From positions 3,316,040-3,380,039 of the forward strand of contig NC_030988.1 of NCBI RefSeq assembly GCF_000149955.1: DNA of 64,000 nucleotides, in the 5' to 3' direction. The stretch's first letter is position 1; every line of letters begins with the position of its first letter. This DNA is from Fusarium oxysporum f. sp. lycopersici 4287. Lineage: Eukaryota; Ascomycota; Sordariomycetes; Hypocreales; Nectriaceae. The notes below the pieces were generated by a model. It worked only from the letters and a program-made list of their open reading frames with translations, was not told where the DNA came from and made no database searches. Positions 36,078-62,477 of this stretch are shown here, in pieces. The translations under genes and the position numbers were made by a program.

Positions 36078-36149
36078 ATTAAGAGTCTCAATTGCATCTC
36101 AGCGACCCGCGCACCCAAATGCATACGACTTTCGGTTCATTCTATCACC

Positions 36150-37391: not shown

Positions 37392-37403
37392 CTTGGGCGG
37401 GGT

Positions 37404-41732: not shown

Positions 41733-44346
41733 TTACCCTGCTTGACTGCCAGCGTCACTAAGCAGTAAGGGTCTGCGTGAGGGACCTCGTTCGTCTTCAT
41801 CATCTACCAGACGTTCGCTTGGTAACTCAATGGCGCGGTCAATCTCATACGGCAAGCCGCGATGACGACCTCGAATCATCATAGCGCATATGACAAGCTT
41901 GCCGTAAACAGAGAATGTGCCAGAGAAAGATGTCTGAACAGCCGGGTGACCAAGACTTAAGCCGACGTTACAGCTGAGACATGAATTTAGACCTTGAAAA
42001 GATGAGCCAAGTCAAAGTACTTACTATGCAGAGGTAACTTCGAAAAATACAGGAAAAACAGAAAACTCCTATCGAACTGATCAGTTTGCAATTCTCAGAC
42101 AGGATGTACAACAAACAAATAGGTTCGGTACTAACAGGCTGTGAGGTATCCATGATCTTTTCCGACTCAGCTATACATATAAGAAAGATCCCCAAAAAGA
42201 TATACCACAGGTCGAAACTTAGCTGATTTCGCATGTGCGAAACAAGGTACTTTCGCCCTGTACTCTCGTCCGGATTCACTTGTTCAGGAGCATAGGTCCC
42301 TAGAGAGCGTTCTTCGTACGTATTGGAGGCACGAATGGTCAAAGCAATGGGGTAAACAGAGATGTACATCATCACCAACAAGCTGAATTGTGCTGCTGGG
42401 TTGAGTTTCGAAAGATCAAAAGTAGACGTTCCTGTATGGCGCGATGAAGCAGCTTGGAAAATAGCAGCTAAGATCCGCCGGGCGAGAGGTAGTTCCGTGA
42501 CGGACGGGTTGTCAAGATCCAAGACGATGAGTAGCAGTACATCAAAGAAGTTGATGAATAGAAGTATGCCAAGCAGGATCCAGGTTGGGCGACTTGGGAA
42601 CAGGAGCATACAGCATCTGCGTGGGTGTTCAAGAAGGAATGCTAGTGGTCCTCGTAGGGCCGAGTTCTTAGGCACAAGCTTGTAAAACGTCCAGATGATA
42701 AGTCGTAAAAAGATGGGATAGAAGTTATATCCGGCGTAAGCAAGGAAAGTCATGATTATCATAGGGAACGTAGCATCGCGGAAGTGGGCCATGGAATCCG
42801 GTGTTAAAGTGAAACCGAGATTGTTCGCCATGGTTTGTGCGGAATAGAAGGCCCTTATATCAGGAAGTCAGAAGGATAACATAGAATCAAGTACGGCCAT
42901 AGGGTAGAAACTCACCACCATATCTTATTCTGACCGACCTCGTCGAGGTAGTCGGTATACTTGGCAGGGGCATGCTGAATCCATGGTATGAGACAGATAA
43001 CTCCTAGGATATGCAGAGCCAAGAAGTATCCTTGCAACGAGTCAGGTTCGGTTCCTCACTGCGAAGGTCATGGGTCATGAGGAAGCATCGACTAGCGAGC
43101 TATACGACTTACCCATAGAAATCCAAAAGAGCAGCTTTAGGCTGCGGTACTCCATGCCTCCCAGGGTTTCTCGTTCTTCCACAGTCAGTCCATGAAATTG
43201 CGAGTTCCTCCCAATAGTGACTCGGGAAGACAGCTGAGGTAGATCTGATACATGAGTGTAGGGTGCTCGAGGTCGAGAGGCGTCACGGCGGCCTCTGTTC
43301 AAACCTCGACTACGGCTTCGTGTCTGGCCTAAAACAAAGACAGACGATGTGACACGCTCTATCGACGCGGTATGCTCTAGACCAAAGTGATCACGAACGC
43401 GCGGGCGAGAGTCTGGACTTGCTCTGGTAGTCATTCGTGCGGCAGACCTTGAGTTTGTTTCCTCTCTTGTACCAACTCGAGTGGCTGATAAGGTATCATG
43501 AGGTATTGACATGAGTGCCGTATCATTTTCCAGATGTCCGGTAGATTCAGGTCGGCTTTGTCGGGTTCTGGAAAACGAGCGCTCTAAACAATGTTACTTT
43601 GGGTTCGGTTGGGTGAGTAAGTGTCTTACTGCGATGACGGCCCCTGAGGGGCGGAGCGTATATGGTTGTGGCGTCCGTCCGATGGTCAGGAAGCGTGTGG
43701 CTAAAAGCGATACGACGACCCTGCTCTACATCTGCATGTTGTTCTGGCACAAGGTCATCGCATTGGTCATCTCTCAAGGATTCTCTTGGCTCCGTCGTGG
43801 AAGATCGGGAGGGCAGAGAAGGATCTGCGGTTGTGGAACCCAGTTGACCAATATGAAGACAGTCATGAGTGGCTGGTACACTGGGATTTTTTATTTGTGC
43901 GGAACGGGCTTTCGAGCGGATCAGGTGCGGTGCTATGCGTGCATCAGCATCGTCAACCATATGTCATGGGCGATGATAGCAGTACCAACTTGCTCGAGAC
44001 GCCGTTCAAACCAGTGGAGACGGACGACGACAACCACAATGTTAATAACAGCCATATGGCTGATGGTGGGAATGATGTAGATGACAAGTTGTTGGTAAGT
44101 CTTCAAGTCTTTGACATCAACCGGATTCAGGCCTGACTCAGTACATGCACTGATGCCGAAGAACAAGGCATCTATAACATCGATGTTACCATAGGGCGCT
44201 ATCACTGTGAAAGCGACTAGGCCGGCGGCAAGAATGTAAACATCTAAAAATCGTAATTAGCTCGCAGGAGCTTGCATGCAGCGCTTTACAGAGTTTGGTC
44301 AAAACCCACAATGCAGAGTAAAAAAATTTATGAAAGGTTTTCCCAT
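41733..44346 (-). CDS. TRK-type potassium transporter (TRK2 copy)
   Basis: Exon 1 (44346-44310) reads MGKPFINFFTLH; exon 2 starts at 44243 and has YVYILAAGLVAFTVIAPYG and the first pore loop DALFFGISACTESGLNPVDV. Unlike TRK1 there is no intron after that loop. The long linker (about 43960-43300) diverges strongly from TRK1 and probably contains introns. The conserved block RVTIGRNSQFHGLT, LGGMEYRSLKLL returns, then FRDATFPMIIMTFLAYAGY, pore loop QAASSRHTGTSTFDL, and, after two introns, YGNVGLSLGHPAV and a tail ending SDAGSQAG (stop 41733). Imports K+ at the plasma membrane. No disabling change seen, but the exon near 42100-42000 needs transcript support. Directly followed on the same strand by HAK upstream. 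Confidence 0.85.
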
Positions 44347-45240
44347 TGTAAAAAACAAATTATGTAGCAGAACTAGTATTTTAAAGCGGGGGTGGGCTGC
44401 TGTTGACTGCAAATATCTGAGAGAGTAAATAGTACCAGGCAAAATTTGCGACGAAACACATTGGGAGTGCTGTGAGTGATATTTATAAGCGTTTTTCTCC
44501 TAATTTTGGCGCACGGCAGGGCTCATGAAAGTGGTTAGTGGGTATTGTTGACTAGTTTCTCGGCACGTGGCTTAGCATTTCTGCATAAACTGGGGGCTAC
44601 CTACAAGCCAAGGCGAATAATCAAGGGAGTAACTTTACAAAGTGCTGTGCAATAAGACAGAACAATCTAGAAGAGTGATCCGCTCAGTTGAGCATAGATC
44701 ATAGATTTGGTCCTCCGGAAAGTCGATTAATACTTGTGAAGTTTTTTTAAAGAGGAAAACTGTCTTAGCTCTTCAATAAAGAAACATGTGCACTGCACCA
44801 ATTCATGGCGAAATACTGAGTTAGATATGGTATATCAGTTACATCTCCTACCCCCTTCGACAACAATCATGTAAAGTCGCAGTCGAACAGAGAGTCCAAG
44901 AGCTACAGGATTTGTGACCACAAACTACTCTTCGGGCCTGAATGAATCGGGTTGTTCAACATCTGAATCCACCCCAACGTTCGGGTCTTGCCAACGAAGG
45001 AATAGCTTCAAATCCAAGTTAGTGGGCTTTGAAACATGCTCTGGAAAACCTTCGGGCCTATTTGATCAGATTTGAGATAGGAGGACTGGATATGAAGTGT
45101 TAAAATGAGTCCGGCATCCGATCATCAGTTGTAGAGTGAAAGTACGCAGAGCATTTGACGGCTGATTTCCAATAGACAATGACGTAATCCTCACCCGGTC
45201 CCTCCTATCTAATGTTATTTGGGGAAGAAACGTTATGATT
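44347..45240. other. Spacer between TRK2 start and HAK stop
   Basis: No ORF of note. Holds the TRK2 promoter and HAK 3' untranslated region. Confidence 0.5.
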
Positions 45241-47700
45241 TCAGATCTCTTTTATGAATCCCACCTCGACGAGGCTCTCGGGATCGATATCCAGGTTAGC
45301 CAACCTTCCATTGAAATTTTCTCGAATCCATAAATAGACTCCCAAAGCCCCACGGCGCATAAGACATTTAATGCAATTACCATCCTTCTTTTGAACTCGC
45401 AGAATTTGTTTGCCGATTAGGTATACCGTCTGAGTATCTTCCGCAGCACGAAGTGATTCAAGCTCTTGTCGTATGTCTGAGGGTAACTCGTCTTCGCTAG
45501 GTTCAAAGGAATCTCTCATGATAAACACCATAAGCTCTCCAATAACTATACGGGTAAGGTTGGATGTAAGAACATCGTCCATATAACCATGCCGCAGAAC
45601 AATATGGTAGCAGGACGGGATGTTAGAATTAACACGGGCGATGACGAATCGTTGGTCGGCCGGGATAGTAGGCTGCGAAAGTGATCGCATATGAAAGAAA
45701 ATGACGACTTGAGGCCTAGTACGGAATTTGTGGACAAAGTGTGTAAAAACCTCCGGAATATGGTCACTGGGACCACCAACTTTGTCGAAGAAAATCCCTA
45801 GGCCTGGGGCGAAAAGGATGTTGTCGTAGGCAAGTTGGCATGCTGAGCTGTTGTCGCGGATATCTCTGGAACTAGCCCTTGAGGTATTATGGGACGAGTT
45901 CTGGGATATGGGGCGTTCGGGGGGGGTTATTCGATCCTGACATTCTGCCGCCCATTGTTGCTCTTTGCCCCATCTCCATAACGATAACAAAGCAGAGAGT
46001 AAGAAAGATAAAACTAGAGCCAACCAAGCTCCTTGTGGCACCTTACTTAACGCTGCACTTAGGTAAACACCATCAAGCAAGATGAAAACGAGGAAGATCA
46101 GCAATACAACCAGCAGATGAACACGCCATATGATAAGCGCAACAAGCGAAACCATGCATGTTGTGAGAAAACAAACGGTTATGGCGCAAGTGCCATATGC
46201 ATAGCCAAGGCTAGTTGTCTTGCATTGCTGCATGTTAGAATTGCACTATTTGATAGAATGGTATGAGATACTTACATTGTTATAAATGGCTGTGACTACC
46301 ACGGTACCAATCATTAACAACCAATTCGCAAAGGGCATATAAACATGACCACGAAAGCGGCGGCTCGTATATATAATCTTGATGTGCGGAAAATAACTTA
46401 GTCTTATCAGTTGCGAGATGAGCTGGAATGAACTCGTAATCATAGCCTGGCTGGCTACAATTGCAGCCAAAACAGCAATTACAACACTAAAATAAAGTGT
46501 TGGTCTTGGGACAGTATAGAAGAATGGATTCGTAAAGGCTATCCCAGTCTCGTCGAAAGAGATATAGGCTGCCTGGCCAGCATAGGCTAGAAGCAAGCTT
46601 GGATAGGCGATAAGCAACCAAGATAGTTGAATGGCACGCTTGCCGAAGGCTCCGAGAGCAGCAAAGAGTGACTCAACGCCGGTGATTGCGAGAAGGAGAC
46701 CGCTAAGGGACTTCCAGCCACTTGAGCCATACAAGTAAGCAAAGGCAAAATATGGGCTAAATGCTTTGAGTACGGTGTGGTCGTATTCTATAAGGTTATA
46801 AATCCCGACACCAAGGTTAAAGAGGAGCCAGATCAGGACAATGGGCGCGAAGAAAGTGCCAATCTTGGATGTACCGAGAGGCTGCAGTAGGAAGAGTAGA
46901 ATAAGTATACTGCAAGTGACGCCGACAATGGCAGGCCTGCCGAGCTCAGGACTCACCACCTGGATACCTTGTACTGCACCGAGGACGGACTGAGCTGGGG
47001 CCAGGACACTATCGGCCAAGGTCATCGACACCCCCATTATTCCAATGAGCTTCAAGCCTATCTTTGCACCTCTACTTGTTTCGATGAAGTTTCGCAAGCA
47101 TCTCCCCGCACGAGACAACTCGGTATCTGTTCTGCGGTCAAGGCCGTCAATGAGGCTTCTAGGGCCATTAGGATCCGTCCGCACAATGCTAGCATGTCGA
47201 GCGAGTAGGGTATAGACAGCAAACGTGCCGCCTTGGCCGCCATCATTGGCCGAGAGCACGATGAAGCAGTACTTGATGGTAACGATAATTGTGAGTGACC
47301 AAATGATGATGGACAGGGCGCCAACTAGATCATGCCATGTTGGCTGCTGGGCAAACGTCGAGCTGAAGACGTAGAGGGGGCTCGTGCCGATGTAGCCATA
47401 CACGACGCCAGTACTCTGCCAGGCGAGCCAGAGCAAAACAAGACTGCTGTAGGTCTTTTCCCCACGTGATTTACCAGTCAGAACGAGATTTATGGGACAC
47501 GCCACCATGTACTCAGGACAAAGTGTACATACCTGCTTGCCCTCACAATGTAGATCTTGGAGTTCGATGCGCTGGGCATTTTCCTGATCATGCAGGTTGC
47601 GTGCTTCGGGGTTTGTGGGCGCAGGAGGATCACTTGCTACAGCAGCCGCGTGGGCCCAGGCTGCTATCCTTTGGTTGCGCTCAGGATATAGCGGCCCCAT
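45241..47700 (-). CDS. HAK/KUP-type high-affinity potassium transporter
   Basis: Main exons: 47700-46276 (with a probable in-frame 78-nt intron at about 47533-47456, GTATGT to AAAAG) and 46227-45241. The protein has the family pattern: GVVYGYIGTSPLYVFSSTF in TM1, TIKYCFIVLSANDGGQGGTFAVYTLLARHA, ADSVLAPAQSVLGAVQGI, SGWKSLSGLLLAITGVESLFAALG, and a cytosolic tail with RFVIARV, YHIVLRHGYMDDVL and ESLVEVGFIKEI. About 12 membrane helices. HAK proteins take up K+ at low external concentration, coupled to H+ or Na+. Notable: the nearly invariant Asp of GDIGTSPLY is Tyr here (TAC). The frame is open upstream of 47700 to about 47870 without an ATG, so an upstream exon may exist. Confidence 0.88.
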
Positions 47701-48865
47701 TTCGATGGGGAGCAAGACCAGCTGCTTGAAAACCTTTGAAGGAGTTAAGTCACGGGCCAGACCCAGGGTTGATGTTTGATAGTCTAGCCATCGCTGAACA
47801 ACATATGGGATGGTGGATACTAGACAAGGTAAGGCAGTTCGCCTAGAGAAAAATAAGGGAAGGAAAATAATTCAACATACTTTTGTCTTTAACTTTGAAC
47901 ACTGTCATCTGTTAATAATTCTCCCGCTGCTACTGATTGGTTACTCTATCATTACTGTAATTCTCAACCACAAAAGGCTAGATTGTTCGGTTAGGTAAAG
48001 ATTGAAAGGAGCCGACCTTGCAAGGGTTATGGGAGGGTCGAGTTAGGTCTTGCTACAAGAAAAAGATAAAAAGAAGATAAGAGTAAAAGGGCATCAAGCC
48101 AGGGACTCTCGCTTAGCATCCCCGCTGCGACTTTAAAAGCCCTTTCTCTTCTCTCTCGCACGCCAAGGTTGAGCTTGTATCTTCGTTCAGATTATATCGC
48201 CGTAATAATAACGTTACGTTGTAAAGAATTGAGTCTAACCAATACTATAGAATAAGCATAAGGAGGCCGCTACAGTCTGGCTGGCATGGCAAGGCATCTC
48301 TTGGCCATACGTAATCCAATCTAGACAAGGATCCTCGCTCTGCACCTGCAAAAAATTTGTTAAGCCACTTACCCACCAGAGCTCTTGGCGAAGCGTAGTG
48401 TATGCGCACGGAGCAAGGAAAACTCTGCGATGATACTCTATACTGTATTCCCCACTGCTTGGCGACAATATGGCGGCGGTGTACGTCTGGGCGGGCTTGG
48501 CATGGCCGCTGGTGGATGCTTTGGATAGACTGTGACCAATGACGAGTTCTTAATAATAGCGTGCGGCCTGTGCGTCGTCATGTGTAATTTCACCAACCAT
48601 CTCTTCAAACCCGACTATTTACTGCCAAGCCGCCAAGAACAACTTCCAGTTCAACACCTAACCATGAACCGAACCAAACTCGCCTAGCACCTGGTCCAAA
48701 TTCCTCCCTCGCCGTCACTGTCGCCACTTACGTCACGCAGGAGTTAGCCCCTGACAACCCCCGCATATACTCTGGGTTTATTTACAGCCCTTGCTTCCTC
48801 CGGTTGCGGTTCTCATTTTTCTCTCTAACAGCTCTGTCATCTTTACAGAAATTGAGACCTTCACA
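47701..48865. promoter_or_regulatory. Shared divergent upstream region of HAK (-) and ENA (+)
   Basis: About 1.2 kb separates the two start regions. Divergent placement allows co-regulation. A pyrimidine-rich run and CACTTACGTCACGC lie within 150 bp upstream of the ENA start; TTACGTCA is a CRE/ATF-like octamer at about 48728-48735. In yeast, ENA1 is controlled by a CRE site, but function here is inference. The left part may hold 5' exon sequence of HAK. Confidence 0.4.
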
Positions 48866-51800
48866 ATGAATCAAAAACCAGGTGAAGAACCTGCCCACGT
48901 CTCGGGTCAGGCCAATTCGCCCATGTCGGCGCCGGCACATGCCCTCTCGTTTCGACAAGTCGCCGAGGAACTCAATGCCAATCTCGAGGATGGATTGACC
49001 ACCGAAGAAGCGAAGAGACGCCTCAGCCAGTATGGCTCGAATGAGTTCGGCGAACAAGAGGGCGTCCAGCCTCTCAAGATTCTTCTAGGCCAGGTTGCCA
49101 ATGCTTTGACTCTAGTGAGATGTCCCATTACCCCCCCTTTGACTTGAACGCATGACACCATTCATGTCGAGTTGAAGGTTTTTTTAGGCAATGGTAGAGT
49201 CGCTGATTTGGTGATGGGGTGAATTAGGTGCTTATTCTCGCTATGGCAGCATCACTCGGCATCCAGTCGTGGATTGAGGGTGGCGTAATTGCTGCCGTTA
49301 TCCTCCTGAACATCGTTGTTGGATTTCTTCAAGAATTTAAAGCGGCAAAGACCATGGACTCTCTCCGCTCACTTAGTTCGCCTACCGCCCATGCTGTCCG
49401 CAATGGAAACAACGAGGTTGTGGTTACAGCAGAGATCGTACCTGGTGATATGGTGGAGTTGAAAACAGGTGACACTATCCCTGCTGATATCCGCCTCGTT
49501 GAGGCTGTCAATTTTGAGACCAACGAAGCATTGCTCACCGGAGAGTCACTGCCCGTTCGAAAGGAAATCAACACTACGTTCCCTGATGACACCGGCCCTG
49601 GCGACCGTCTCAATGTTGCTTATAGCTCCTCAACAGTTACTAAAGGACGAGCTCGTGGAATTGTTTTTGCTACCGGAACTTACACTGAGATCGGCCAAAT
49701 CGCTGTTGCCCTTCGTGGCAAGTCCTCCCGCCGCCGCGAGCCCAAGAGAGATGCTGAGGGAAAGGCCTCGGCGGGCCGTTGGATGCAAGCCTGGACTCTG
49801 ACCTTCTCCGATGCTGTTGGGCGCTTTCTGGGTGTCAACGTTGGGACGCCCCTTCAACGCAAGCTCGCCAAGCTGGCCATCTTGCTGTTGGGAGTGGCTA
49901 TCGTCTGCGCTATTATTGTTCTGGGAGCCAACGAGTTCAACACTAAGAAGGAGGTCATCATCTATGCTGTTGCAACCGGTCTCTCCATGATTCCTGCTTC
50001 TCTTATCGTTGTGCTCACTATCACCATGGCCGCCGGCACTAAGCGTATGGTTCAGAGACATGTAATCGTGCGCAATCTGAAGAGCCTCGAAGCCCTAGGC
50101 GCGGTAACCAGTAAGTCATCCAAGGTGACCTTCCTGCCACTCTACTAACAGCCCAAGACATTTGTTCAGACAAGACAGGCACCTTGACCCAAGGCACCAT
50201 GATCGTCAAGAAGGCGTGGGTTCCTGGACGAGGCACATACTCCATCGGTGCCACCAACGAGCCCTTCAACCCTACCATGGGTGACCTAGGCCTCCAAGAA
50301 ACTCAGCCTAAGGATATCGACTTCCAAGCTGAGGACTCTGAAGGTGCCGTCATCAATCCTGAGCAGCTCGCGGCCCAAGACGGTGCCCTTCAAGCCTACC
50401 TCAACATCGCCTCGTTAGCCAATCTCGCCACTGTCCACCAAGTTGAGGGTGAATGGCATGGTCGTGGTGATCCTACCGAAATTGCTATTCAGGTTTTCGC
50501 CTCACGATTCAACTGGAACCGATGTCAACTTGCAAGTGGTGAGAAGCCTCGCTGGCGCGAAGTTGCCGAGTTTCCATTTGACTCTGATGTTAAGAAGATG
50601 TCCGTGATCTTCGAGGATAGTGAATCTCAGAAGCAATGGGTCTTTACTAAGGGTGCTGTTGAGCGTGTCTTGACCTCATGCCCTGTTTATGCTGTTGGCG
50701 ATGAGATCCGAGAACTGGGAGATGATGTCAAAGAGGACGTCCTTCGCAATATGGAATCACTCGCTCGCTTAGGTCTGAGAGTTCTTGCCCTGGCTAGCCG
50801 CACTGATATTCCCCACGTCACCGATAACGAAGCCGATCTGGACCGATCCCAGTTTGAGAATGATCTCATCTTTCGAGGATTGATTGGTCTTTATGACCCT
50901 CCTCGTCCTGAGTCCGCATCGTCGGTCAAGATGTGCCACCAGGCCGGAATCAGTGTTCATATGCTTACTGGTGACCATCCCGAAACTGCCCGAGCTATTG
51001 CCCTGGAGGTTGGCATTCTGCCTGAGAAGATTTCGCAGATCCCCAAGGACGTTGCCAAATCCATGGTCATGGCCGCATCTGAATTTGACAAGTTAACTGA
51101 TGCTGAGGTCGACAATCTTCCTCTACTGCCGCTTGTTGTTGCACGGTGCGCTCCCCAAACGAAGGTACGCATGATTGAGGCCCTGCACCGCCGTAAAGCT
51201 TTCGTTGCTATGACTGGTGATGGCGTCAACGACTCGCCAAGTCTAAAGCGGTCCGATGTTGGTATCGCGATGGGCTTGGCCGGATCAGATGTAGCCAAAG
51301 AGGCTTCCGACATCGTCCTCATGGATGATAACTTCGCATCGATTCTGAATGCTGTGGAAGAAGGTCGACGCATGTTTGATAATATCCAAAAGTTTATTCT
51401 CCATGTTCTTGCGGAGAATATCGCCCAGGCGTGCACTCTCCTTATTGGGCTAGCCTTCAAGGATCGCAATGGATTGTCTGTTTTTCCCTTGGCCCCAGTC
51501 GAAATTCTGTGGATTATCATGATCACTTCCGGTATGCCAGATATGGGCCTTGGCTTTGAGATTGCGGCACCTGATATCATGCAGCGCCCACCCCAGAATG
51601 TGAGTATTCGTTCTTGATATTCTATGTATGCACTTTGCTAACATCGCAATAGTTGAAACAAGGCGTTTTTACCCCAGAGCTACTCCTTGATATGGTAGTC
51701 TATGGCCTCTGGATGGCAGCCCTATGCCTAGCCTCATTTGTTCTGGTCCTCTACGGCTTTGGTCGTGGCGCCGATGATATCGGTGAGAACTGTAACAACA

Positions 51801-52297
51801 GTTATAGTGAGGACTGTAAAGTTATTTTCAGAGCCCGTTCGACCACCTTTGCCTGCCTCACGTGGTTTGCGCTATTCCTGGCTTGGGAAATGATCAACAT
51901 GCGGCGATCATTCTTCCGTATGCAGCCCAAGAGCAAGCGATACTTTACTCAGTGGATGCATGACGTCTGGCGCAACTCCTTCCTATTCTGGGCTATTGTC
52001 GCGGGCTTTGTTACAATGTTTCCTATCATCTATATCCCCGGACTGAACACTGTCGTTTTCAAGCACGCGCCGATCTCATGGGAGTGGGGCATTGTTTTTA
52101 TCGCGGCGGTGGTCTTCTTTATGGGGATCGAATTTTGGAAATGGCTTAAGCGAGTCTACTTCCGCCGCCAGGCTCGTAAGGTGTCTGGTAACGTTGCGGA
52201 TTTGGAGACTCGTGTTTTTGGACGCTACTACAACATGGGTACCGGCAGCCAGGATGAAGAGACAGGAGCCAGTGCGGGAGAGAAGGTGGCTCAGTAA
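48866..52297 (+). CDS. ENA-type (P-type IID) sodium/potassium-exporting ATPase, about 1072 aa
   Basis: Exons 48866-49114, 49228-50110, 50158-51599 and 51653-52297 join in phase. N-terminus has the cation-ATPase domain LSFRQVAEELNANLEDGLT. Actuator: TGESLPVRKE. TM4: LSMIPASLIVVLTITMA, characteristic of ENA. Phosphorylation loop across the second intron: TNICSDKTGTLTQGTM (Asp phosphorylated). Hinge: MTGDGVNDSPSLKRSDVGIAMG. C-terminal four to six helices and a soluble tail ending AGEKVAQ. Pumps Na+, Li+ or K+ out of the cell at alkaline pH or high salt. All catalytic motifs are intact. Start chosen at MNQKPGEEP, preceded by an open but ATG-less frame. Confidence 0.93.
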
Positions 52298-53385
52298 GTC
52301 GCGTTCGGCCGATGAGATGCAAGCAGACCAACATATTCTGAGCATTATGCCAGCTCCTTCTTGTGGCCTGCCATAGAGGCATCCTGGGACGGAGAATTGA
52401 AGATTTATAGAATAGGTAAAGTCCTTGCGGATAGGTAAGTATGGGATGTGCCTTTGATGAGATGTAGATTTTGGTAAAGTTACGTAGCTCAGCAATAGTG
52501 AGTAATACGAACCATAATGCATCCGGAAATCTAAAGGGTGAAAAAGGAAACCGATCACCCACACTGTTTATAACACAGGTGGTAGCTGGCAGTTAGGCCG
52601 ACGGTGTAATCTTTGTAGGTTTTACATGCTGGTTAGCCGATCACAATACAAAGAAAAGCGAGGACAAGGAAGTCAGATCATAGCTAAAAAAGGATTATAG
52701 TTACGAAACCGAGCCCCAACATTACAGACGCTGAGCTAGCAAGTCGCTTTATGGCTTTTGATGTTCAGACCAACTTGGGCATCAACCAGTTATGACATCT
52801 AAATATTGTTTATTATGCACCGAATCCAGATCTATGCCAACATATTAAGGCATCATAAGTTTTACAGTCTAACTACAGGGTAAAAAACTATAAAACAAAT
52901 TTAGTATAAAAATAGCATAGAGTGATACTCAATCTTGACAGGAAGGGAATGAGACGACGAAACTAGTAGTTGTTAAATCTTTTTATGTTAAAATCAATTC
53001 TACCCTTGCAAGACGCTCAATTGCAGTCGCCTTGGACCAGTCCATCAGCAATCCACGAGCTAGGCGCATAAGTAATAGAACCCATCAAAACGCCCGACAT
53101 AAGTCCAGCTCTGGGAAAAAGTAATAAACCACTTCAGGCGCCTCGCAGCATTTCAATGTTAGACGGGGGACCTACAGGTGACAGCTCTCTACATCAGATG
53201 ACATACGCTTCCTAGCACGCGACAACGACCCCTCACTCGCTACCTTTGTTTGTTTGTTTGTTTGTTTGTTTGTATATTTTTCGTCTGGGTGGCTGTAACG
53301 AAGCCAGATCTCCTACTGGAGCAAAAGACGTGCTGAGCTAGCTAGGTACAGGGAAACCCCGCTTCCTTCACCATCCAGCATACCA
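52298..53385. other. Spacer with a (TTTG)n microsatellite
   Basis: No convincing gene. A TTTG repeat of about six units lies at 53247-53272. Confidence 0.5.
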
Positions 53386-53778
53386 ATGGCACAAAAGGTG
53401 CTGTATTTCTCAAGCCCGTCACCCGTCAGCGGGTTCGGGGGCAATCTACTGTCGAGCTTTTTCCACCGACCAGAATTCTCTCACGCATCACTACATCTGC
53501 TGACGCAGTCCACAATCTCCAGTAACCAAGTTGTAGCTCGTAGTCGACTGTCGTGGCGGCAGGGAAAAACCTTGGGAAGGAATCAGAGGCCGGCGGTGCG
53601 GCTTGCCTTCAAAGGGGAAAAACCCATCGCAATCGGCGTCGTTGATCGGGAGGATGTCGCTACCGATGCCACGGGCACCGTCCTCCGATATCTAAGGCGT
53701 TCTGGTTCTGAGGTGCCGCCATTAGATCCGACAAAGGTGTTGTCAGAGAAGGTGAACTCTCCAAAATTCCTTCTCTGA
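53386..53778 (+). CDS. Unrecognised 130-aa open frame
   Basis: Reads MAQKVLYFSSPSPVSGFGG and ends NSPKFLL. No domain, signal peptide or membrane segment is convincing. The opposite strand is also open at 53908-53660, so coding potential is doubtful. It lies between ENA and the kinase relic and could be a remnant. Confidence 0.2.
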   Translation: MAQKVLYFSSPSPVSGFGGNLLSSFFHRPEFSHASLHLLTQSTISSNQVVARSRLSWRQGKTLGRNQRPAVRLAFKGEKPIAIGVVDREDVATDATGTVLRYLRRSGSEVPPLDPTKVLSEKVNSPKFLL

Positions 53779-54944
53779 AAACTGCTGTTAGGGAGCCGAT
53801 GGCGTCCCCGCAGTATTGTGTGGCCGAGTAGCCCGTAGAAAATCCCGCTCCTAACAGTGCACTAACAGTGCGTGCCAAGAAAGAATTTTTACAGGGGAGA
53901 GTTGTCACTCGCTACCTTCACGCCGATAGACCTTGTGTCGCAGGGTAGGCATTAGTAATCTAGCTATATGCTTTAAGTAACTCTGCGGGATGGAATACCC
54001 CGCACAAGAGACAACTTAAGACATCAATCAACACATTTGCTGCTGCTCATCATATTCACTCTAACCCTTTAAGCACGCTAAGTGCGACACCTTGCGTGCA
54101 ATGTAATCATTGTCCTCTGAAAAGCGGGGCTGCTGGTTCTGGACGCCTTGGCGGGTTACTTGGCGCTGTCATCTTCCACTCGTTAAGATCTCTCGACCCG
54201 CGCCCCAAGGCAATGCTAATCTGTCACACCTTGGGGACAAGGCGTAATAATGACCGTGCGAAGCAGCTATTGACTACTGTCATTGACTTCTCTTTGTTAC
54301 TAGTTATCGCTTGGAGGCACCAATGTGCGTTAGATATGTAAAAAGGGAGCTTAGCATGGGTAACCTATATGGATACAGTATCATAATAACAAAGACTCCC
54401 ACCGTTTTGAAGCCAAGGCCAAGTTATCGGAGTCCTCGGCAGCGAAATCAAGAGTTGAGGCCATACTAGAAGCGGGGTCATCTTGGCGAAGCTCTTGGCA
54501 GAAATTCCTAGCAACGTAGTGCTGTATCAGCCCGTTCGCCTGAATCCCTTCCTTGTCTTGTTTAGACTCATTTACCTGGGAGAAAAAATCTGGTTGGCAG
54601 TCAATTCTGCATTAAGAAAAGCAACCTACTTTCGCCACCAGCAGTTACAACGTATTCGGACCGCTTTACTGTCGATAAGACTCGAACAGGTGGCCTGTGA
54701 TTTCGTCTGCGGGTGGTTGGAAGATGCCGCTACAGGAACTTACTGTCCTGCCAGAACCACAAGGTGGTCATGAGTACCATTTAGGCTCCAACCACACGAA
54801 GAGACTCACATCAAGGACTCAGAGCAACCTTCGAGCATACGGCGACGGTAGGCGCGCATGCCGTTGCTGGTATCGAGTCAGTGGAACTCTAATAAACATA
54901 TCACAGCACAGCTTACGTCCGAGAAGCAAGGCTGGCGCGGCAAC
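53779..54944. other. No recognisable gene
   Basis: Several short ORFs without family resemblance. The right end may include decayed 5' sequence of the kinase relic. Confidence 0.45.
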
Positions 54945-55590
54945 ACTGGTAGAGAGGTGCGGCAAGTGCTGGGAAGTAGCGGGCCGTACGAAGTTCAGTA
55001 TCGCGTTCGTCTCGTGCAGGAAAAAGGATAATGGAGCGGGCGCAGAACTATATGCAGTCAAGAATGTCCAGCGACAGCCGAAGGAGACAGAACATATGTG
55101 CATAAGACGGTCGACCGCAGAGTTTTGTGTTTTAAGCGCGCTTCCGAATGTAATATGCACACTCGAATTGCTCATGGACACAAAGGGTGACTACTGCGAG
55201 GTGATGGAGTGCTGCTCTGGTGGTGACTTGCATAACTTGATGCGCATGGTGGGCACGTTGAAGTGGCAGGACGCGGACTGCAATATCAAACAATTGATGC
55301 GCGGTGCTGAATATCCATGAGATAGGGGTTGCGCATCTTGAACTCAAGTGTGAGAACCTTCTTTTTACTGGCGACGGCATTCTCAAAATCAGCGACTTTG
55401 GCCATAGTGAATGTGTCCGCCTTGGTTGGGACAAAGAGGTTCATACGGTTTCCGGAATCCGAGGCTCGGGTCCATACATCGCTCCTGAGGAAGATCTTAC
55501 GCACGATACCTTATGGAACGCCGGCAGCAGGAGGGCTTTGGCCCAATCGAATCGTTGCCCCGAGTAACTTCTCTGGTCCGTCAATATTAC
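54945..55590 (+). pseudogene. Degenerate copy of the Hal4/Hal5-like kinase
   Basis: Plus-strand fragments follow the intact kinase at 56236-57513 in order: CGKCWEVAGR, AELYAVKNVQRQPKETE, RRSTAEFCVLSALPNVI, GDYCEVMECCSGGDL, QLMRGAEYP, then (one-base frame change near 55310) HEIGVAHLELKCENLL, LKISDFGHSECVRLGW, GSGPYIAPEE, a deletion of about 50 residues, and RRQQEGFGPIESL. The glycine loop is destroyed (GYGASG became GRTKFS) and the catalytic HRD is HLE. It cannot be an active kinase and is almost certainly untranslated as a whole. It points toward the intact copy, so the pair is in inverted (convergent) orientation. Confidence 0.85.
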
Positions 55591-56235
55591 GGTCGCATTC
55601 TAGGAGCTGAAATTTACATCTTGTCTAGTTACACAGTCGAAATACCATATATTGCCTCTTGGACCCCAATCCATCCAGCCGGCTTACGGCATCGCATGTA
55701 TCGAGATCCGAATGGGGGCCGGAGATCAGACTTTGCAAGGCTAGCGAGTGTTTTTGACCGTGAAATATACCATGTTAGCGCTAAAAACTATACCCTTATG
55801 GCAAGGAGATAACACCGCTTGATGACGACGCATCGCCTCGGCCGTTTCCGACATCTTAGGAGATAGTGGAGTTTGAGGGCTGAGCCGTATATAACTAGAG
55901 AGTACGCTCCCAATGATCGGTTATCAGCTAAATTGTACGTCGAGCGGGTCGAGCTTAGAAGCTGTCACTTAGAAAGCCGGATATGTCCCAACGTTCATTG
56001 TCGAGGGACAGACCAGTTCCCTTGCGTTTCGACCACCGTTAACCTGGCTTCAAGACAGTCGCGAACTACCCTGATTATTTTGAGCATCCTAGCTATCTAC
56101 TCCTAAGACAAGAGATATGCATATAGCCATAGCGTATGATGATATGACAACGATGTGTAGCTGAGTCTCTTTCTAACCTTTCTAGCTTGTTGCGGGCTTA
56201 GATGTAGGTGACGCCACTTTTCAATTATGCCAGCG
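55591..56235. other. Spacer between the kinase relic and the intact kinase
   Basis: No gene seen. It contains the 3' ends of both convergent copies. Confidence 0.5.
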
Positions 56236-57513
56236 CTAGAAGGCCGCCTGACAAAGTTGTATGTTTTGACCCCATTGCGACCGCAGGACTTGTGATGCCG
56301 TGATACGGCGAAGCGGATTCGGATCTAGCATGCAGTAAATAATATCCCGGCAGTTTGACTAATTGCCTCGTTAGTCAATAGTTTAATCGTGAAAAGCCAA
56401 GCACACGGGAACGGAACTTACTGGGTTTAACGACTCAATTGGACTGAAACCTTCCTCTTGACGACGATCCTTGAGATAGTGTGCATATATCTCATCCTGA
56501 TCCTTTCTGGCCTGATGCCAGAGGTAACTCCCCGTGCGCATGACAATATAAATGACACCGCAAGCCCAGACATCGACTGCTCGGCCATCGTATTCCTGAT
56601 CTGTATACACTTCTGGAGCGATATATGGTCCTGAACCGCATAACCCGGACATAAGATGGACGTCATTCTCCCAAGCCATGCGAAAGCAGTCGCTGTTGCC
56701 GAAATCACTGATCTTGAGGCTGCCGTGCCTGGTAAGCAGCAGATTTTCTGGCTTGAGATCGCGGTGCGCTACACCCATCTCGTGCAAGTACTCGATGCCG
56801 CGCATCAACTGCTTAAAGAAGCAGTCCGCCTCCTCTACCTCTAACTTCCCTGCCGAGTACACTAGCGTGAATAGGTCGCCACCTTCGCAGTATTCTATCA
56901 CCTGGCAGTAGTTCCCCTTCTCATCTGTCAGTAGCTCGAGCGTGCGGATCACATTTGGATGGCGTAGCTCGCTGAGGACGCAGAACTCAGCGGTTAAGCG
57001 CCTGATGTACTCATCCTCCGTCTCCCGCGACCGACGCTGGAGCTCCTTCACCGCGTATAGTTCTTCGCCAATTCCATTCTCCTTTTTCTTGCGCGAAACA
57101 TGGACGATGCCAGATGCGCCATATCCAACCACTTCCTGGCACCTGCCGTACTTTGCCGACAATATAGGTCCCTTATTATCCTCCTGCGGCTGCTTCTTGC
57201 TCAGTATTTTCCTCCATCGATCAAATAGCGACCTTTTGCGCAGTTTTTGTTCAATACGGTGCCCATGCCCTTCTTGCAGTGCGATGAACCGCTGCAGCGG
57301 CGCAGTGTTGCTGCCATCGAAATTGGTTAAATTTGGAATCAGAGGCGCTTCATCCGCGTTCATGTCAGTTGATACTGCTTTTCGAGTATCAGGTGCCGGC
57401 TCTGCAGAGGAGTTCGAGGGCTGCACAGTGCTACCTTCGACCTCTAAATTAGTAGTAGCAGTCGCATTGTGCTGCAGTCGCCTCAGCTTGGCGATGTTTC
57501 TCAACGATTCCAT
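56236..57513 (-). CDS. Hal4(Sat4)/Hal5-like serine/threonine kinase, 404 aa
   Basis: Exon 1 57513-56422, intron 56421-56359 (GTAAGT to TTAG), exon 2 56358-56236. A 115-residue low-complexity N-terminus precedes the kinase: YGRCQEVVGYGASGIVHV (glycine loop), LYAVKELQ (Lys), RRLTAEFCVLSELRHPNVIRTLEL, VIEYCEGGDL, ADCFFKQLMRGIEYLHEMGVAHRDLKPENLL, LKISDFGNSDCFRMAW, GSGPYIAPEVYTDQEYDGRAVDVWACGVIY, and exon 2 CRDIIYCMLDPNPLRRITAS. These are hallmark sequences of the fungal NPR/HAL5 subfamily. In S. cerevisiae, Hal4 and Hal5 stabilise and activate the Trk1/Trk2 K+ transporters and give salt tolerance. All catalytic residues are present. It sits between ENA and NHA, so its role in this cluster is likely control of K+ uptake (inference). 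Confidence 0.9.
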
Positions 57514-58410
57514 AATTAAGGCTTACCCCTCTCGTTACAGCAGAGTGGACCGTAAGTGCTCTCAGGATAGCCGCCCACAACAAGCCTGGGGATGGCTGCG
57601 AATATGATGCGGCGGTAGTGAGATTCGCATTTGTCTGCAGGCCACGAACGCAAGAATTGTCGTCTCGAGAAAGCCAAACTCAAGTGTAGACTGTTTAAAT
57701 CGAAAGTATATCGAGCGAGTCCCCAGATTCCCCGGTTGCAAGAAGGATAGGTTTAGGTGGAAATTACTGTCTTGTTACTCTCCTGTTCTGACCTGTGGCA
57801 ATATTATTGAGGTAGATACTTCGGTCGTTCGTGTGGCATCTCCACCAAGATTGGCGCCGAAAGTGCGGGCGTAGCCTTTATGTGCTGAGAGTCATTTATG
57901 ATGCCAGGCTTCTCTTGGCGAAATCAAGCTAAAGTGCTAATGCCATTCTTACACAATAACGGGACTGTGGGAAGACGAATCACCGATATAGTGATACCAG
58001 ATGGCTAGCAAGAGTTCCGCTTCCGGCACCTCAGATCATGTTAAAAAAAAAAAAATGAAAAAAAAAAAAAAACTGGCAAAGTAATAGCGAAATTCTTTTT
58101 GTTGGCCATGGGTTCGAGGAATTGACTGGTAGGCAGCAGAATACTTGAGGCATTTTTGGCTGCCAAGGTTTTGCCAAGATCTTGGCTTGTTGGTGATGAC
58201 AGGGTATTACATCAGCTGAGTACATACATGCCAATGCAAGCTAGAGCAGGCTACAACACTTCAATATGCACTCCTTCGCAAAAAGCAGCGATTTTGATGA
58301 CTTCACGATTGAGGGGTGGTTTGGGTACGGCCCCGAGATCACAAGGGAAACTTGGTCACAAGAGATCGCCTTCCAGGCCTCCAAAAAAAATCCAAAGAAA
58401 TCTCCCAATA
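57514..58410. other. Kinase upstream region; two poly-A runs
   Basis: No gene. A-runs at 58041-58070 precede the pogo relic and could mark its left side. Confidence 0.45.
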
Positions 58411-59774
58411 AAGAGAATGCTTCTTGTAGATAGTTTCTCAGCTCATAAGGATCCCCAATTTATTTGGTATTATATAATGTTCGATATTATCCCTTATTAA
58501 CTCCTTAGTCATACAACTCATCTCCTTTAGCCTCTTGATATGGGGGTCTATCAGCATCTCAAGCGCGCACAAAGAAGTGCTTTATACGACTTCACTGGAG
58601 GCGGCGGCCTTCAATTATCGAGATTTCAGTTCCTCGGTATGTCGAATTGTCTATAAAAAGTTGCCTTGAGAGCTTGTTATATATATATATTGGCTGGGAA
58701 AAGTCAGGTTTTTAGCTAATTGACCGGGAAGTTGTTTTGGAACCACTACGACGAGCAGCTCATGAGCAAACCGAATCTTTAATTCCCAACCTTATTCATC
58801 CTGTTACTCCAATAACAGCCAAAAAACAGTTCAATTCGATACGAGATGAGCTTCAAATTCTCAGCAGTCCAACGAGAGCTACCTTAGAAGATGCAGAGTC
58901 TTTTTTAGACTATGCAATTATCGCCAAATTGGCGCAGAAGGATATTGTAAAATTACAGAAGGAAAAGCTCGAACTGGAGGCACGCCAGATTCGTAACCCC
59001 GATGGAGGTGCTTATACAATCCGGCAGTTGCGTGAGATGGTGTCAGATCGAGCTCAACAGGAATTGCAGATAACTAACAAAAGGCAGGCAAAAGACCAGG
59101 AAGCATGGTTCAAGCAGCTTCGCGAGGAAGCCCTCCTCAAAGAAGATAATAGACCGAAATTACGAGGAAGAGCAGCTGCCAAAGCGAAGGCGTCACGAGA
59201 AGCTCTAGAGGCAACTCGGTGGGAGGAAATCCACAAAACCTTCACTGATCCAAATACAATTGAGGAGCAACAACGCCAGCTACGACGACGGGAGGTAGCT
59301 AATAAGGAAAATCGATTCTTGATGATTACAATGGTACCAAAATCACACCTTGAAGCTATTCCTAACCTCGAGAAATGGGTCGGAGAAAACTCTCGCCCCG
59401 GCGAGGCTAACGAGGCTGAAGTTATATATGTTCAAACCGATATCGCCGATGATTTCATCTCGGTAGACTCAACACGAAAGTTACCTTCTTTGCCAGGGAC
59501 CTCGGGCTCCGATGAGGATGATATTGAGATCAGTACGTGCCCCCAGGTGGTAGCTACCAGAGGCGGCCCTTCTAATCACTCAATGATGCCATTTGGCGTG
59601 ACAATTGATGTAGAGGAAGAGATTGAAATATCCGTGATGCCTCAGAATGGATGGGGCTACGAGCGTGGGCCGAATCATTATTCTGATGAAGAAGATGAAG
59701 GTTATGTAGAGGTGGATTGGGTTATTTTGCCTGCGCCGAGGTCGCGGGGTCGGACTGACCGTTCAAAAAAGTAA
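58411..59774 (+). pseudogene. pogo/Fot-like transposase relic; C-terminal 345-aa frame still open
   Basis: The 5' part holds the second catalytic region MLLVDSFSAHKDPQFIWYY and then, after an in-frame TAA, HTTHLL-stop-PLDMGVYQHLKRAQ, where TAG replaces the Gln of LLQPLD. Another stop follows near 58650. From 58737 a clean frame runs to 59774: FLDYAIIAKLAQKDIVKLQ and a long charged coiled coil (residues 60-180), then an acidic tail. Such helical C-termini are common in pogo-superfamily transposases of fungi. The N-terminal HTH region was not found. The open frame may be chance survival or a retained protein. Confidence 0.7.
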
Positions 59775-60492
59775 CAACACAACACGATAGTTTGCAGTTC
59801 AATTTGAACGAATTTGCTATTGAGAAGTATATGAGATTACAGCAATTGAATCATATAACCTTTATCTTCATACAACCAAAATTGCCTATCGCAGTTTATA
59901 CGAAGGTTACGTTATGTGGTTATGGTTTGTACGCGGTTAGAGGTTACGGCACCCCCTCTTAGAAACAGAAGGGGGGGAGGGGCAAAACCACTTTTATCAA
60001 CCCGCCGGGTAGTTTCGAGTCGTCGCATGTGCTTTGTTTAATGCGGCCTTGTCAAACTTTTAGACATAATTGCTTACCAAGTTCAATCATTACAAGTGTC
60101 TTAGAACTGAGGCATGTAAAGCAAACTTCGGCATGCTTATCTACCTCGAGAAATATTAAGGTTGCGCGTTACTCTGGTGCTCTCTACTGGTAACTCATGA
60201 GCCCCAAAAGTGTGATAGGGCTCTCTTATCTCTATACGTAAATAAGTATCGGAGAATACCTCTTTTGAAGTCAGACTTGTCCTTAAAGCTTGCTGTCATC
60301 GTTTTTTTTTTTTTTTTTTTTTTTTTTTTCGAACTTACAGTTTCCATCACGAGAAAGTCACGAAAGGGCAAGCTGTGTAAACGAGTGACATGATATATAA
60401 CGTAACAGGCCATGTGTCCTTGTGGAACTAAAACGAGAGGAGAGGTTAGGGCAAAGACCCATACTGACTAACCTACATACCAGTCTCCATTC
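59775..60492. other. Spacer; poly-T tract
   Basis: A T-run of about 27 bases lies at 60303-60329. No gene seen. Confidence 0.5.
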
Positions 60493-62477
60493 TTAGACAA
60501 ATCTCAAACCACCCTTCTTCTTCGGAGATTGGCGCCCCTTGCCAAGATCCTCATCATCAGAAAACTCATGATCCTCATTAGCAGACCTGCTAACCGGCAA
60601 GCCAACAGCATTGGCATCGACATGGCGACTAAAGCGGTTGTACGCAATAAAAGTATCCTTATCGCCAGCCACCGCATTGGCAGGGGTGGCAACCTGCATC
60701 GAAATGCGCCTCAGCTCAACAGCATCCTCCTTGATAGGCGCCTTGCCGGTGTAGTGATAAAAGACGTTGAGTGCAGGGATCGATAGACCGTGGACAATGA
60801 TGGAAAACAGCACGAGCCAGTAAACTGTCGGCCCCATAGCTCGAACAAGGTTGGTCTCCTCCTCATCACCCTCACCATCATGCGGAAACAAATGTCTGGC
60901 GTGCTCAACATAGAAAACGGCGCCAGCGCCGATGGGTCCGAAATAACCCATGAAGAGTGCCTCTTTCCAGTTTGTGCAAACACCAGGCATCAGCTTATAA
61001 AAGGCAAAAATGGCAGGTAATCGGCGGAAGATGAGAACGAGGAGTCCAAGACCTAGAAGACGACCCCATGTGATGCCAGTGCCAGTAGGGTCGTTGAAGT
61101 CTGACCAAGGCAGAATAGCACCGATGTACATGAATCCGCCGAAATTGAGAAGGACGTCAACACATGAATTAACTTCGTCGTGACGGAGTTCAGTCTCGCG
61201 GAGGTAGTGGCCGTCCCAGTTCAAGGCGCAGCCAGCGACGAAGCAGGCCAAAAGGTCGTCAGTGCCGAGAGCTCCGCAGGTTCCGACGATGAACAGGCCC
61301 AGGGCTGTGGGAAAGAGGACGTAAGACTCGTTATCGATCCACTTCCTGTATAAGATAGGATTAGAACAAGGTGGAAAATGGCAGACAATGAATACTGCAG
61401 GTGTTGATATGATGTTGCGGCGTTGTAGAGATCACTTACCATCTCAGAGCAAGGCGAACAGCCTTGCAAGATCCATACCCAACAACGGCACCATATGCAA
61501 TGGACAAGACAATGGTATACAGCCACGTCTCAACGAACCATTCTGTGAGAGCCACTCCAACTCCACCACCCAGACGTCCAACCTCACCAGCACGAGCCAT
61601 CAAAGTATGAGCAACGGAATGACCAGCTTCACCTGCAGCTCCAGCCTTGGCACCAGCACCAGGGATCTCTGCGTGCTGAATCAAGTATGTAGCAAGCATC
61701 AAAAACGGGAAACCGAAACCGTCGTTGGCACCCGCTTCGGCAGAGATGATCTCGCGTAGTGGACGAGCGACATATTTATCGGCGAAAGGGCCTTTGGCGA
61801 TGGCCTGTGAGAGGATGGGATCGGTGCAGGTGACGCAGGAGCCGATGACGAGAGCGGCCAGGAGTGTTAACTTGGGAATCGTGAGCATGATACAGGCTGT
61901 TGTACAGAGCCACATGACGGTCATGATGGGGAGAAGACAAAGTGCCATTTCTTTCCACCGTGCGAGACCATATTTGGCTGGGAGTTGGTAGCCTGCGATG
62001 ACGAGCTGAACGCCAATCATAACCCGAGCGACGCCCTAGTTCTTTGGGATCAGTATTTGCTCGTAGCGTCTTGTAGATAAGCTGCGTGGGATGGCTGGGG
62101 ACAAACCAGAGTGATGGCGTTAGTCTGGCCTGGTTCGGCAGAGCCCCATTTCTCGCTCTCGATAAATTTGGCTGCTAAAGGTCCAAGGATGACGCCAATG
62201 AAGACGGCGGGGACTAGGAGGTGTTAGATACTGTAGTGATGTGAAGGCAGAGGACGAAAGGACTGGAATGGGGATGTGGGGTACTGACGGGCTTCACCAA
62301 GATACCAAGCCTGCTTGATCTTGACCGAGATGATGCCATAGAGAATCGTGAAGGCGCCTAGATACAAACATGTAAGCAAAGGCCTTAGCGGCAAGAGCCA
62401 AGAGATGGATGGGCGCCAAGGTACGGACCCAAGACGCTGAGCACGATGTTCAGCTCGCTAAGGTTCAGGACAGGCAT
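60493..62477 (-). CDS. Nha1/Sod2-type Na+(K+)/H+ antiporter
   Basis: Five exons on the minus strand. Exon 1 (start 62477) reads MPVLNLSELNIVLSVLG; exon 2 FTILYGIISVKIKQAWYLGEA; exon 3 PAVFIGVILGPLAAKF and GQTNAITL; exon 4 (62035-61440) and exon 5 (61345-60493) hold most of the membrane core. Family motifs: CTDPILSQAIAKGPFADKYV, ISAEAGANDGFGFPF (the ion-binding Asp pair), TDDLLACFVAGCALNWDG, GYFGPIGAGAVFYVEHARH. It ends with a short acidic/basic tail SDDEDLGKGRQSPKKKG; this tail is much shorter than in S. cerevisiae Nha1 and nearer fission yeast Sod2. Exchanges cytosolic Na+ or K+ for H+ at the plasma membrane, complementing ENA at acid pH. Intact. Confidence 0.92.

What the first reader, a model, noticed from the sequence alone, without database searches (positions are those of the whole stretch)
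41733..62477. A physical cluster of monovalent-cation homeostasis genes with its own regulatory kinase
TRK, HAK, ENA, a Hal4/Hal5-like kinase and a Nha1/Sod2 antiporter lie within 21 kb, with a second TRK and a HAK relic 25 kb to the left. These functions jointly set cellular K+/Na+ balance, and in yeast the kinase acts on Trk itself. I know of no described fungal locus uniting all five. The genes look intact while everything around them is transposon debris. It may act as a transferable salt/alkali-tolerance or host-ion-adaptation module.
Basis: partly seen in the sequence, partly recalled or inferred. Interest (0 to 1): 0.9.

Follow-up and report, generated by a model that had tools for sequence, protein, structure and literature searches.

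The report
Fungal accessory-chromosome salt and potassium cluster
In the tomato wilt fungus Fusarium oxysporum, genes that pump sodium out and potassium in sit side by side on a triplicated accessory block, and some carry many motifs for the alkaline-pH regulator PacC, which makes the idea of a salt and pH tolerance module on accessory DNA testable.

Summary
The window is F. oxysporum f. sp. lycopersici 4287, contig C3. Within 41.7-62.5 kb lie TRK2, HAK, ENA1, a HAL4/5-like kinase and a Nha1/Sod2-type antiporter. TRK1 and a HAK relic lie to the left; a second ENA and a Na+ symporter-family gene lie just beyond the window. HAK, ENA1 and the kinase have intact spliced models. TRK1, TRK2 and the antiporter have open membrane-domain exons but no full model. 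A second kinase is a relic. The stretch (at least 84 kb) exists three times (C3 twice, C6 once) at 99.9-100% identity, fitting the published chromosome 3/6 duplication. Paralogues elsewhere are scattered; random placement never put five families in 21 kb (0 of 20,000). HAK and an ENA probably share a 20-kb F. solani contig. ENA2 is 96% identical to F. falciforme against 85-89% for core-like ENAs, suggesting horizontal transfer. New: HAK and ENA1 diverge from one 1.2-kb promoter with eight PacC motifs (GCCARG); the kinase promoter is also rich, TRK, ENA2 and antiporter promoters are not. Best reading: a partly PacC-governed alkaline/Na+/K+ module on accessory DNA. Expression and phenotype are untested here.

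The parts
13803..14246 (+). HAK C-terminal relic
   Evidence: tblastn 33% identity to residues 621-774 of a Fusarium HAK, E 3e-20
16450..18950 (-). TRK1, K+ uptake transporter (TrkH); membrane-domain exons open with GT-AG introns, N-terminal loop and start not modelled with certainty (ends approximate)
32958..34322 (+). chromate transporter family gene, open frame; five GCCARG in the 1 kb upstream of the frame
41733..44250 (-). TRK2, K+ uptake transporter; membrane domain open across GT-AG introns, cytoplasmic loop about 43.97-43.60 kb not modelled with certainty (start approximate)
45244..47700 (-). HAK high-affinity K+ transporter, 774 aa, two introns, intact, 96.3% to F. oxysporum f. sp. 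vasinfectum protein P0003
47701..48865 (.). shared divergent promoter of HAK and ENA1 with eight GCCARG (PacC consensus) sites
48866..52297 (+). ENA1, type IID Na+/K+ efflux P-ATPase, 1072 aa, four exons, intact, DKTGT/TGES/GDGVNDS present
53246..53905 (.). 660-bp dispersed repeat inserted between ENA1 and the kinases
   Evidence: 40 rows listed, 37 of them at 100% identity; lower bound
54900..55746 (+). broken second HAL-type kinase (relic)
   Evidence: three frame breaks in spliced alignment, about 53% identity
56239..57513 (-). HAL4/5-like kinase, 404 aa, one intron, catalytic motifs present
57514..58514 (.). kinase promoter with five GCCARG sites
60493..62477 (-). Nha1/Sod2-type Na+/H+ antiporter, several exons (5' exons set by eye), membrane-domain exons open

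Best explanation
It is an accessory-genome gene cluster for monovalent-cation homeostasis, part of it under the alkaline-pH transcription factor PacC. When ambient pH (and Na+) rises, PacC switches on ENA1 and HAK from one shared promoter, and also the HAL kinase and, further out, a Na+ symporter-family gene and a chromate-family transporter. ENA and the antiporter export Na+. HAK (and TRK) restore K+ uptake. The HAL kinase raises Trk-type uptake, as Hal4/Hal5 do in yeast (recalled). The cluster was assembled from diverged, partly horizontally acquired Fusarium paralogues and tripled in dose when the chr3/chr6 block was duplicated. Shown here: gene content, order, integrity of three genes, triplication, phylogenetic discordance of ENA2, PacC-motif enrichment at some promoters. 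Inferred: PacC binding, co-induction, kinase-Trk action, horizontal acquisition, benefit to the fungus.
For: Gene identities. Intact HAK, kinase, ENA1. Non-random co-location with paralogues on other contigs. HAK/ENA1 divergent promoter with eight GCCARG: none of the other 179 permuted motifs reaches eight (mean 1.0); kinase 5: none of the other 179 reaches it. The six promoters chosen first hold 20 sites where 10.9 are expected from the 84 kb (binomial P 0.006). Two neighbours tested afterwards are rich too: symporter 6 and chromate 5 (each reached by 2 of 180 motifs, GCCARG included); all eight together 31 against 14.4 expected (P 4e-5, partly post hoc). Published PacC-controlled ena promoters hold two to six such sites (PMC7459330; PMC10455529). 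HAK and ENA on contigs of equal length 20,224 in F. solani. Accessory lineages shared across species complexes: HAK with F. solani, HAL with F. phyllophilum, F. keratoplasticum and F. solani, ENA2 with F. falciforme at 95.9%.
Against: Four of eight promoters are not enriched in GCCARG: NHA 3 (18 of 180 motifs reach it) and TRK1 1 and TRK2 1, ENA2 2 (36 of 180), so the regulon does not cover all members; the TRK start codons are not established, so their 1-kb stretches may not be the promoters. The symporter promoter was looked at because the motif scan peaked there, so its value is post hoc. Other GCCARG-rich windows lie at 27 kb, inside HAK and ENA1, and at 53-55 kb. The core HAK upstream stretch has 3 (14 of 180), so PacC control may not be special to the cluster. 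No expression data were available. PMC6001611 reports lineage-specific HAL kinases at least 30-fold below the core copy, although four of five Fo4287 HAL kinases were expressed. Two relics show that decay is under way. The ENA on the F. solani contig is not the orthologue of ENA1 or ENA2.
Confidence: 0.52

Rival explanations
1. A decaying hitch-hiker: duplicated transporter genes that drifted together in a repeat-rich accessory block, weakly expressed and carried along by the block's segmental duplication, with no joint function.
For: Relics of HAK and of a HAL kinase, many transposon pieces, low expression of accessory HAL kinases in print (PMC6001611 passages), three near-identical copies explained by block duplication alone.
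Against: Three genes kept fully open at 96-100% to relatives, random co-location improbable, PacC motifs concentrated at several promoters, HAK-ENA linkage hinted outside the species.
Confidence: 0.3
2. A host-adaptation module: the cluster mainly helps growth in plant xylem or other host fluids and is one reason why the second small chromosome (chr3/6 block) is linked to stronger disease.
For: The block corresponds to that chromosome and is said to hold few if any effector genes (PMC3599309 passages; PMC5140021 passages).
Against: PMC5140021 points to transcription-factor genes in the block; no in-planta expression of these transporters was seen here; the window's exact share of the transferred chromosome was not checked.
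Confidence: 0.12
3. Cargo of a Starship giant transposon.
For: Multi-gene tolerance cargo is typical of Starships (recalled); patchy distribution of relatives.
Against: DUF3435 matches lie no nearer than about 1.4 Mb to any block copy, 1.96 Mb to the window's own (13 matches in the genome, search by six-frame candidates); the copies sit in a longer duplicated block.
Confidence: 0.04
4. Assembly artefact joining unrelated pieces.
For: The accessory region of this assembly holds gaps (N at L030:2833-3953, and at the matching place in both other copies).
Against: No N inside the window, same order in three places, published chr3/chr6 duplication, linkage hints in other assemblies.
Confidence: 0.02

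Closest known systems
Cation-transporter and HAL-kinase enrichment of F. oxysporum accessory chromosomes (PMC6994591, PMC6001611, PMC12345182; passages seen)
   Same: Same kinds of gene families, accessory location, also a chromate transporter; in NRRL 32931 an accessory pacC lies next to an ENA gene
   Different: The passages report family counts and GO enrichment, not a contiguous TRK-HAK-ENA-HAL-NHA block, a shared HAK/ENA promoter or PacC-site enrichment
PacC-controlled ena genes of Aspergillus nidulans and Penicillium expansum (PMC7459330, PMC10455529; passages seen)
   Same: GCCARG-bearing promoters (5, 6 and 2 sites; 6, 5 and 2 sites) before ENA pumps
   Different: No shared HAK-ENA promoter or accessory cluster in the passages seen; here the promoter is shared with a HAK and the genes are accessory
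Copper-related gene concentration on an accessory contig of F. oxysporum IB-SN1W (PMC11708227; passages seen)
   Same: Tolerance genes gathered on accessory DNA
   Different: Copper, not Na+/K+; no regulatory kinase named in the passages
Yeast Trk/Hal4-Hal5/Ena/Nha1 network (recalled; Mulet 1999 seen only as a reference-list entry)
   Same: Same functional set
   Different: Genes unlinked in yeast (recalled); no accessory block

Membership tests
Fungal TRK K+ transporter | TrkH domain above cut-off | tested here: met
   221 and 220.7 bits against 27 for one exon each
Fungal TRK K+ transporter | full-length TIGR00934 score above 441.9 | tested here: inconclusive
   293.5 and 300.6 bits from one exon each; whole protein not modelled
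HAK/KUP K+ transporter | K_trans plus K_trans_C domains in an intact protein | tested here: met
ENA type IID P-ATPase | P-type motifs and best match TIGR01523 | tested here: met
   motifs; 629.7 bits for one exon against cut-off 645.05, best of 19 families; 97% to a relative over 1072 aa
HAL4/HAL5 kinase | protein kinase with catalytic motifs, nearest relatives named HAL/HAL4 kinases | tested here: met
HAL4/HAL5 kinase | acts on Trk transporters | not testable with these tools
   needs experiment
Nha1/Sod2 antiporter | Na_H_Exchanger domain above cut-off | tested here: met
   62.6 and 44 bits against 26.2
Nha1/Sod2 antiporter | TIGR00844 equivalog cut-off 1236 | tested here: inconclusive
   129.6 and 95.4 bits for separate exons; only family matched, but exons only
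PacC regulon | GCCARG enrichment in promoters | tested here: inconclusive
   rich at 4 of 8 (HAK/ENA1, HAL; SNF and chromate added later), not at 4 of 8 (NHA, ENA2, TRK1, TRK2)
PacC regulon | PacC binding and pH response | not testable with these tools
   no expression or ChIP data held
Starship element | DUF3435 captain at one end | tested here: not met
   no match within about 1.4 Mb of any copy
Accessory chr3/chr6 block of Fol4287 | near-identical copies within C3 and on C6 | tested here: met
   that C3 and C6 are chromosomes 3 and 6 is inferred from number and size

The most novel reading that the evidence does not exclude
A transferable fungal 'ion island': K+ uptake (HAK, TRK), Na+ export (ENA, NHA), a Na+ symporter-family gene and their own regulatory kinase, wired to PacC through a shared HAK-ENA promoter, spread between Fusarium species complexes on accessory DNA and raised to three doses in Fol4287; it would be a selectable benefit of the second mobile chromosome, whose responsible gene was stated to be unknown in PMC3599309 (passage seen).
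Probability: 0.28. Interest if true: 0.82.

Novelty: new variant of a known kind. Interest (0 to 1): 0.6.

Why it matters
Accessory fungal chromosomes are mostly discussed for effectors. A compact, PacC-marked Na+/K+ module would show that they can also carry a whole physiological circuit, and would offer one testable reason why cation transporters and HAL kinases are enriched there. It also offers named candidate genes for the unexplained effect of the chr3/chr6-type chromosome.

Tried and rejected
Starship cargo: disfavoured for lack of a DUF3435 match within about 1.4 Mb of any copy and because the copies lie in a longer duplicated block. Mimp inverted repeats (pattern recalled): none in the window with up to one mismatch. 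CDRE-like and SltA motifs (patterns recalled; SltA also): not enriched in any of six promoters. A DNA search with most of the cluster was swamped by one dispersed repeat. Paper searches for a Starship carrying salt-tolerance genes gave nothing useful. A paper on dry-cured-meat Penicillium (PMC10519415, passages) was checked and is not relevant. Core paralogue promoters and the C4 antiporter could not be fetched, so the antiporter has no homologue-based model and the core PacC control is limited to one upstream stretch (L036). Synteny in other fungi could be judged only from equal contig lengths, read by eye in three lists of 120 hits each (more may have been missed): 20,224 (HAK and ENA, F. 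solani), 687,738 (HAK and ENA, Neonectria ditissima), 4,552,110 (ENA and HAL, f. sp. albedinis). The last two are long contigs and weak evidence, and the N. ditissima HAK is in the other HAK clade. On checking, I added a PacC test on the six promoters chosen first (P 0.006 instead of 4e-5 for all eight) and lowered the best-explanation and novel-case odds slightly for it.
Full report
What the window is. The 64-kb window is G000:C3:3316040-3380039 of a 61.2-Mb genome. The kinase is identical over 404 aa to a protein named 'HAL protein kinase [Fusarium oxysporum f. sp. lycopersici 4287]', whose longest contig has 5,634,991 bases, exactly the length of C3. The genome is therefore Fol4287; that C3 and C6 are its chromosomes 3 and 6 is inferred.

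What is there. Pfam and NCBIfam place TrkH at 41968-42867, K_trans/K_trans_C at 47871-45241, an ENA-type P-ATPase, a protein kinase and a Na_H_Exchanger in the stated order. A second TRK lies at about 16.5-18.9 kb. A HAK C-terminal relic lies at 13.8-14.2 kb and a broken second HAL kinase at 54.9-55.7 kb. A chromate transporter gene is at 32958-34322. Beyond the right edge, locus L030 holds a second ENA (L030:684 onward, cut by a 1,121-base assembly gap after residue 660) and a sodium:neurotransmitter symporter-family gene (frames L030:6983-8239 and 7759-8634).

Integrity. ENA1 was modelled by setting its three introns by hand: 1072 aa in four exons, no stop, P-type motifs present, 97% to P0241 over its whole length. 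The in-frame stop flagged in HAK by the six-frame search falls in its second intron. For both TRKs the membrane-domain introns have GT-AG ends, but in the variable cytoplasmic loop the same alignment placed doubtful introns, so no full model is claimed. The antiporter exons are open, but no homologue-based model was possible.

The block is triplicated. Window plus flanks (84 kb) was compared with C3:2736188-2826187 (inverted) and C6:1637082-1727081. Among matches over 1,500 bases, the C3 copy aligns in three pieces at 99.993, 99.947 and 100% and the C6 copy in two at 99.995 and 100%. The break near 66.8-68.0 kb is the assembly gap, present in all three copies; the break at 30.63-30.71 kb in the C3 copy is a short divergent stretch, not a gap. 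Kinase hits in matched sets of three suggest that the duplicated region is far longer. [quoted passage not shown] I did not check which part of the block is in the transferred chromosome.

Is the clustering chance? Outside the block the genome holds four TRK, two HAK, five ENA-like (51% identity or more), two HAL-like (54 and 67%) and seven Na/H-exchanger loci (candidate lists are capped). Placing all 28 non-redundant loci at random gave five families within 21 kb in 0, and three or more in 14, of 20,000 trials. The test assumes independent placement; duplication beside a parent gene could explain two copies of one family but not different families together.

Relatives. Trees were built from chosen rows: 24 of the 120 listed HAK hits, 23 of 120 HAL hits, and 23 and then 21 of 120 ENA hits. 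The accessory HAK of F. oxysporum forms one clade (100/100) whose sister is a F. solani HAK (100/98), apart from the core HAKs of Fol4287 and F. vanettenii. The accessory HAL kinases form one clade of 11 rows (100/100) with F. phyllophilum, F. keratoplasticum and F. solani, apart from the HAL4-type kinases of other fungi, among them F. piperis and F. euwallaceae. ENA1 pairs with f. sp. albedinis at 97%. ENA2 sits with F. falciforme, F. austroafricanum and F. nygamai: over its 660 residues it is 95.9% identical to the F. falciforme protein P0246, while core-like ENAs of F. oxysporum (P0250) and F. keratoplasticum (P0242) are 88.6% identical over 1030 residues and 85.4% over the first 658 aligned. 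That these two are orthologous core genes is inferred from the tree; Fol4287's own core ENA was not fetched. NCBI taxonomy places F. falciforme in the F. solani complex, F. austroafricanum in the F. concolor complex and F. phyllophilum and F. nygamai in the F. fujikuroi complex. This discordance suggests horizontal transfer of ENA2; an old paralogue kept patchily under strong constraint is not excluded.

Linkage elsewhere. F. solani P0006 (HAK) and P0245 (ENA) are both reported on a longest contig of 20,224 bases, so the pair is probably linked there too. The ENA on that contig is not the orthologue of ENA1 or ENA2 by the tree, so any conserved linkage is at family level only.

Regulation. HAK (minus strand, start 47700) and ENA1 (plus strand, start 48866) diverge from 1,165 bp. 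GCCARG, the PacC consensus given in PMC10455529, occurs eight times there. Of 180 motifs made by permuting its letters only GCCARG itself reaches eight, the mean being 1.0. Other 1-kb stretches gave: kinase 5 (1 of 180), NHA 3 (18 of 180), TRK1 1 (92 of 180), TRK2 1 (78 of 180), ENA2 2 (36 of 180), and, looked at afterwards, symporter 6 (2 of 180), chromate 5 (2 of 180), core HAK 3 (14 of 180), copia 0, RING gene 1 (56 of 180). The symporter was looked at because the window scan peaked there. The six promoters chosen first hold 20 sites against 10.9 expected (binomial P 0.006); all eight hold 31 against 14.4 (P 4e-5, partly post hoc). Against the local density the single-promoter P values are 0.0006 (HAK/ENA1), 0.005 (symporter), 0.02 (kinase), 0.02 (chromate) and 0.2 or more for the rest, uncorrected; three motifs and six promoters were tried at first. 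Windows of 1,165 bp with six or more sites also occur at 27 kb, inside HAK and ENA1, and at 53-55 kb. TRK, symporter and chromate stretches were measured from frame or match edges, not from proven start codons. In print, A. nidulans enaA, enaB and enaC promoters hold five, six and two PacC sites, and enaA and enaB expression is abolished in a mutant with non-functional PacC (PMC7459330).

How it probably works. At alkaline pH and high Na+, processed PacC would switch on ENA1 and HAK together, so that Na+ export is coupled to K+ uptake, and the HAL kinase would raise Trk-type uptake. Only the gene content, integrity, copy number and motif counts are shown; the rest is inference from the yeast and Aspergillus systems.

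Prior work. Accessory chromosomes of F. oxysporum were already known to be enriched in cation transporters, with an accessory pacC beside an ENA gene in NRRL 32931 (PMC6994591), in HAL kinases (PMC6001611), and in potassium-transport, chromate-transporter and HAL4-like genes (PMC12345182). PMC6001611 counts five HAL kinases in Fo4287, which would agree with three block copies plus C5 and C4 here; it says that all but one were expressed and that the core copy was at least 30-fold above the lineage-specific ones. Ten searches of the held library found no paper describing this physical cluster; most subscription papers are not held, and I did not see Ma et al. 2010.

Noticed in passing
window 53246-53905: A 660-bp element with 40 rows listed across many contigs, 37 of them at 100% identity (lower bound); a TTTG repeat at its left edge suggests a SINE such as Foxy (name recalled).
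   Followed up: partly
window 36069-41243: Copia-type element with two long open frames, the second with reverse transcriptase and integrase-region matches, so probably a young insertion rather than debris.
   Followed up: partly
L030:684-2832 and gap 2833-3953: Second ENA pump cut by an assembly gap that recurs at the matching place in both other block copies; its closest relatives are in other Fusarium species complexes.
   Followed up: yes
L030:6983-8634: Sodium:neurotransmitter symporter-family gene with six GCCARG sites in the 1 kb upstream, about 7-9 kb past the window's end.
   Followed up: partly
window 31957-32957: Five GCCARG sites upstream of the chromate transporter; related chromate transporter copies on C15, C13, C1 and elsewhere on C3.
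   Followed up: no
L029:5678-7591: Open MCRA-family (oleate hydratase-like, function recalled) gene left of the window.
   Followed up: no
window 15493-16167: RING-finger ORF next to TRK1.
   Followed up: no
P0001 (F. oxysporum f. sp. albedinis): A HAK transporter carries the source name 'Vegetative incompatibility protein HET-E-1', a likely misannotation.
   Followed up: no
P0121 (F. phyllophilum): HAL kinase 96% identical to the window's kinase in another species complex, on a 40-kb contig.
   Followed up: partly
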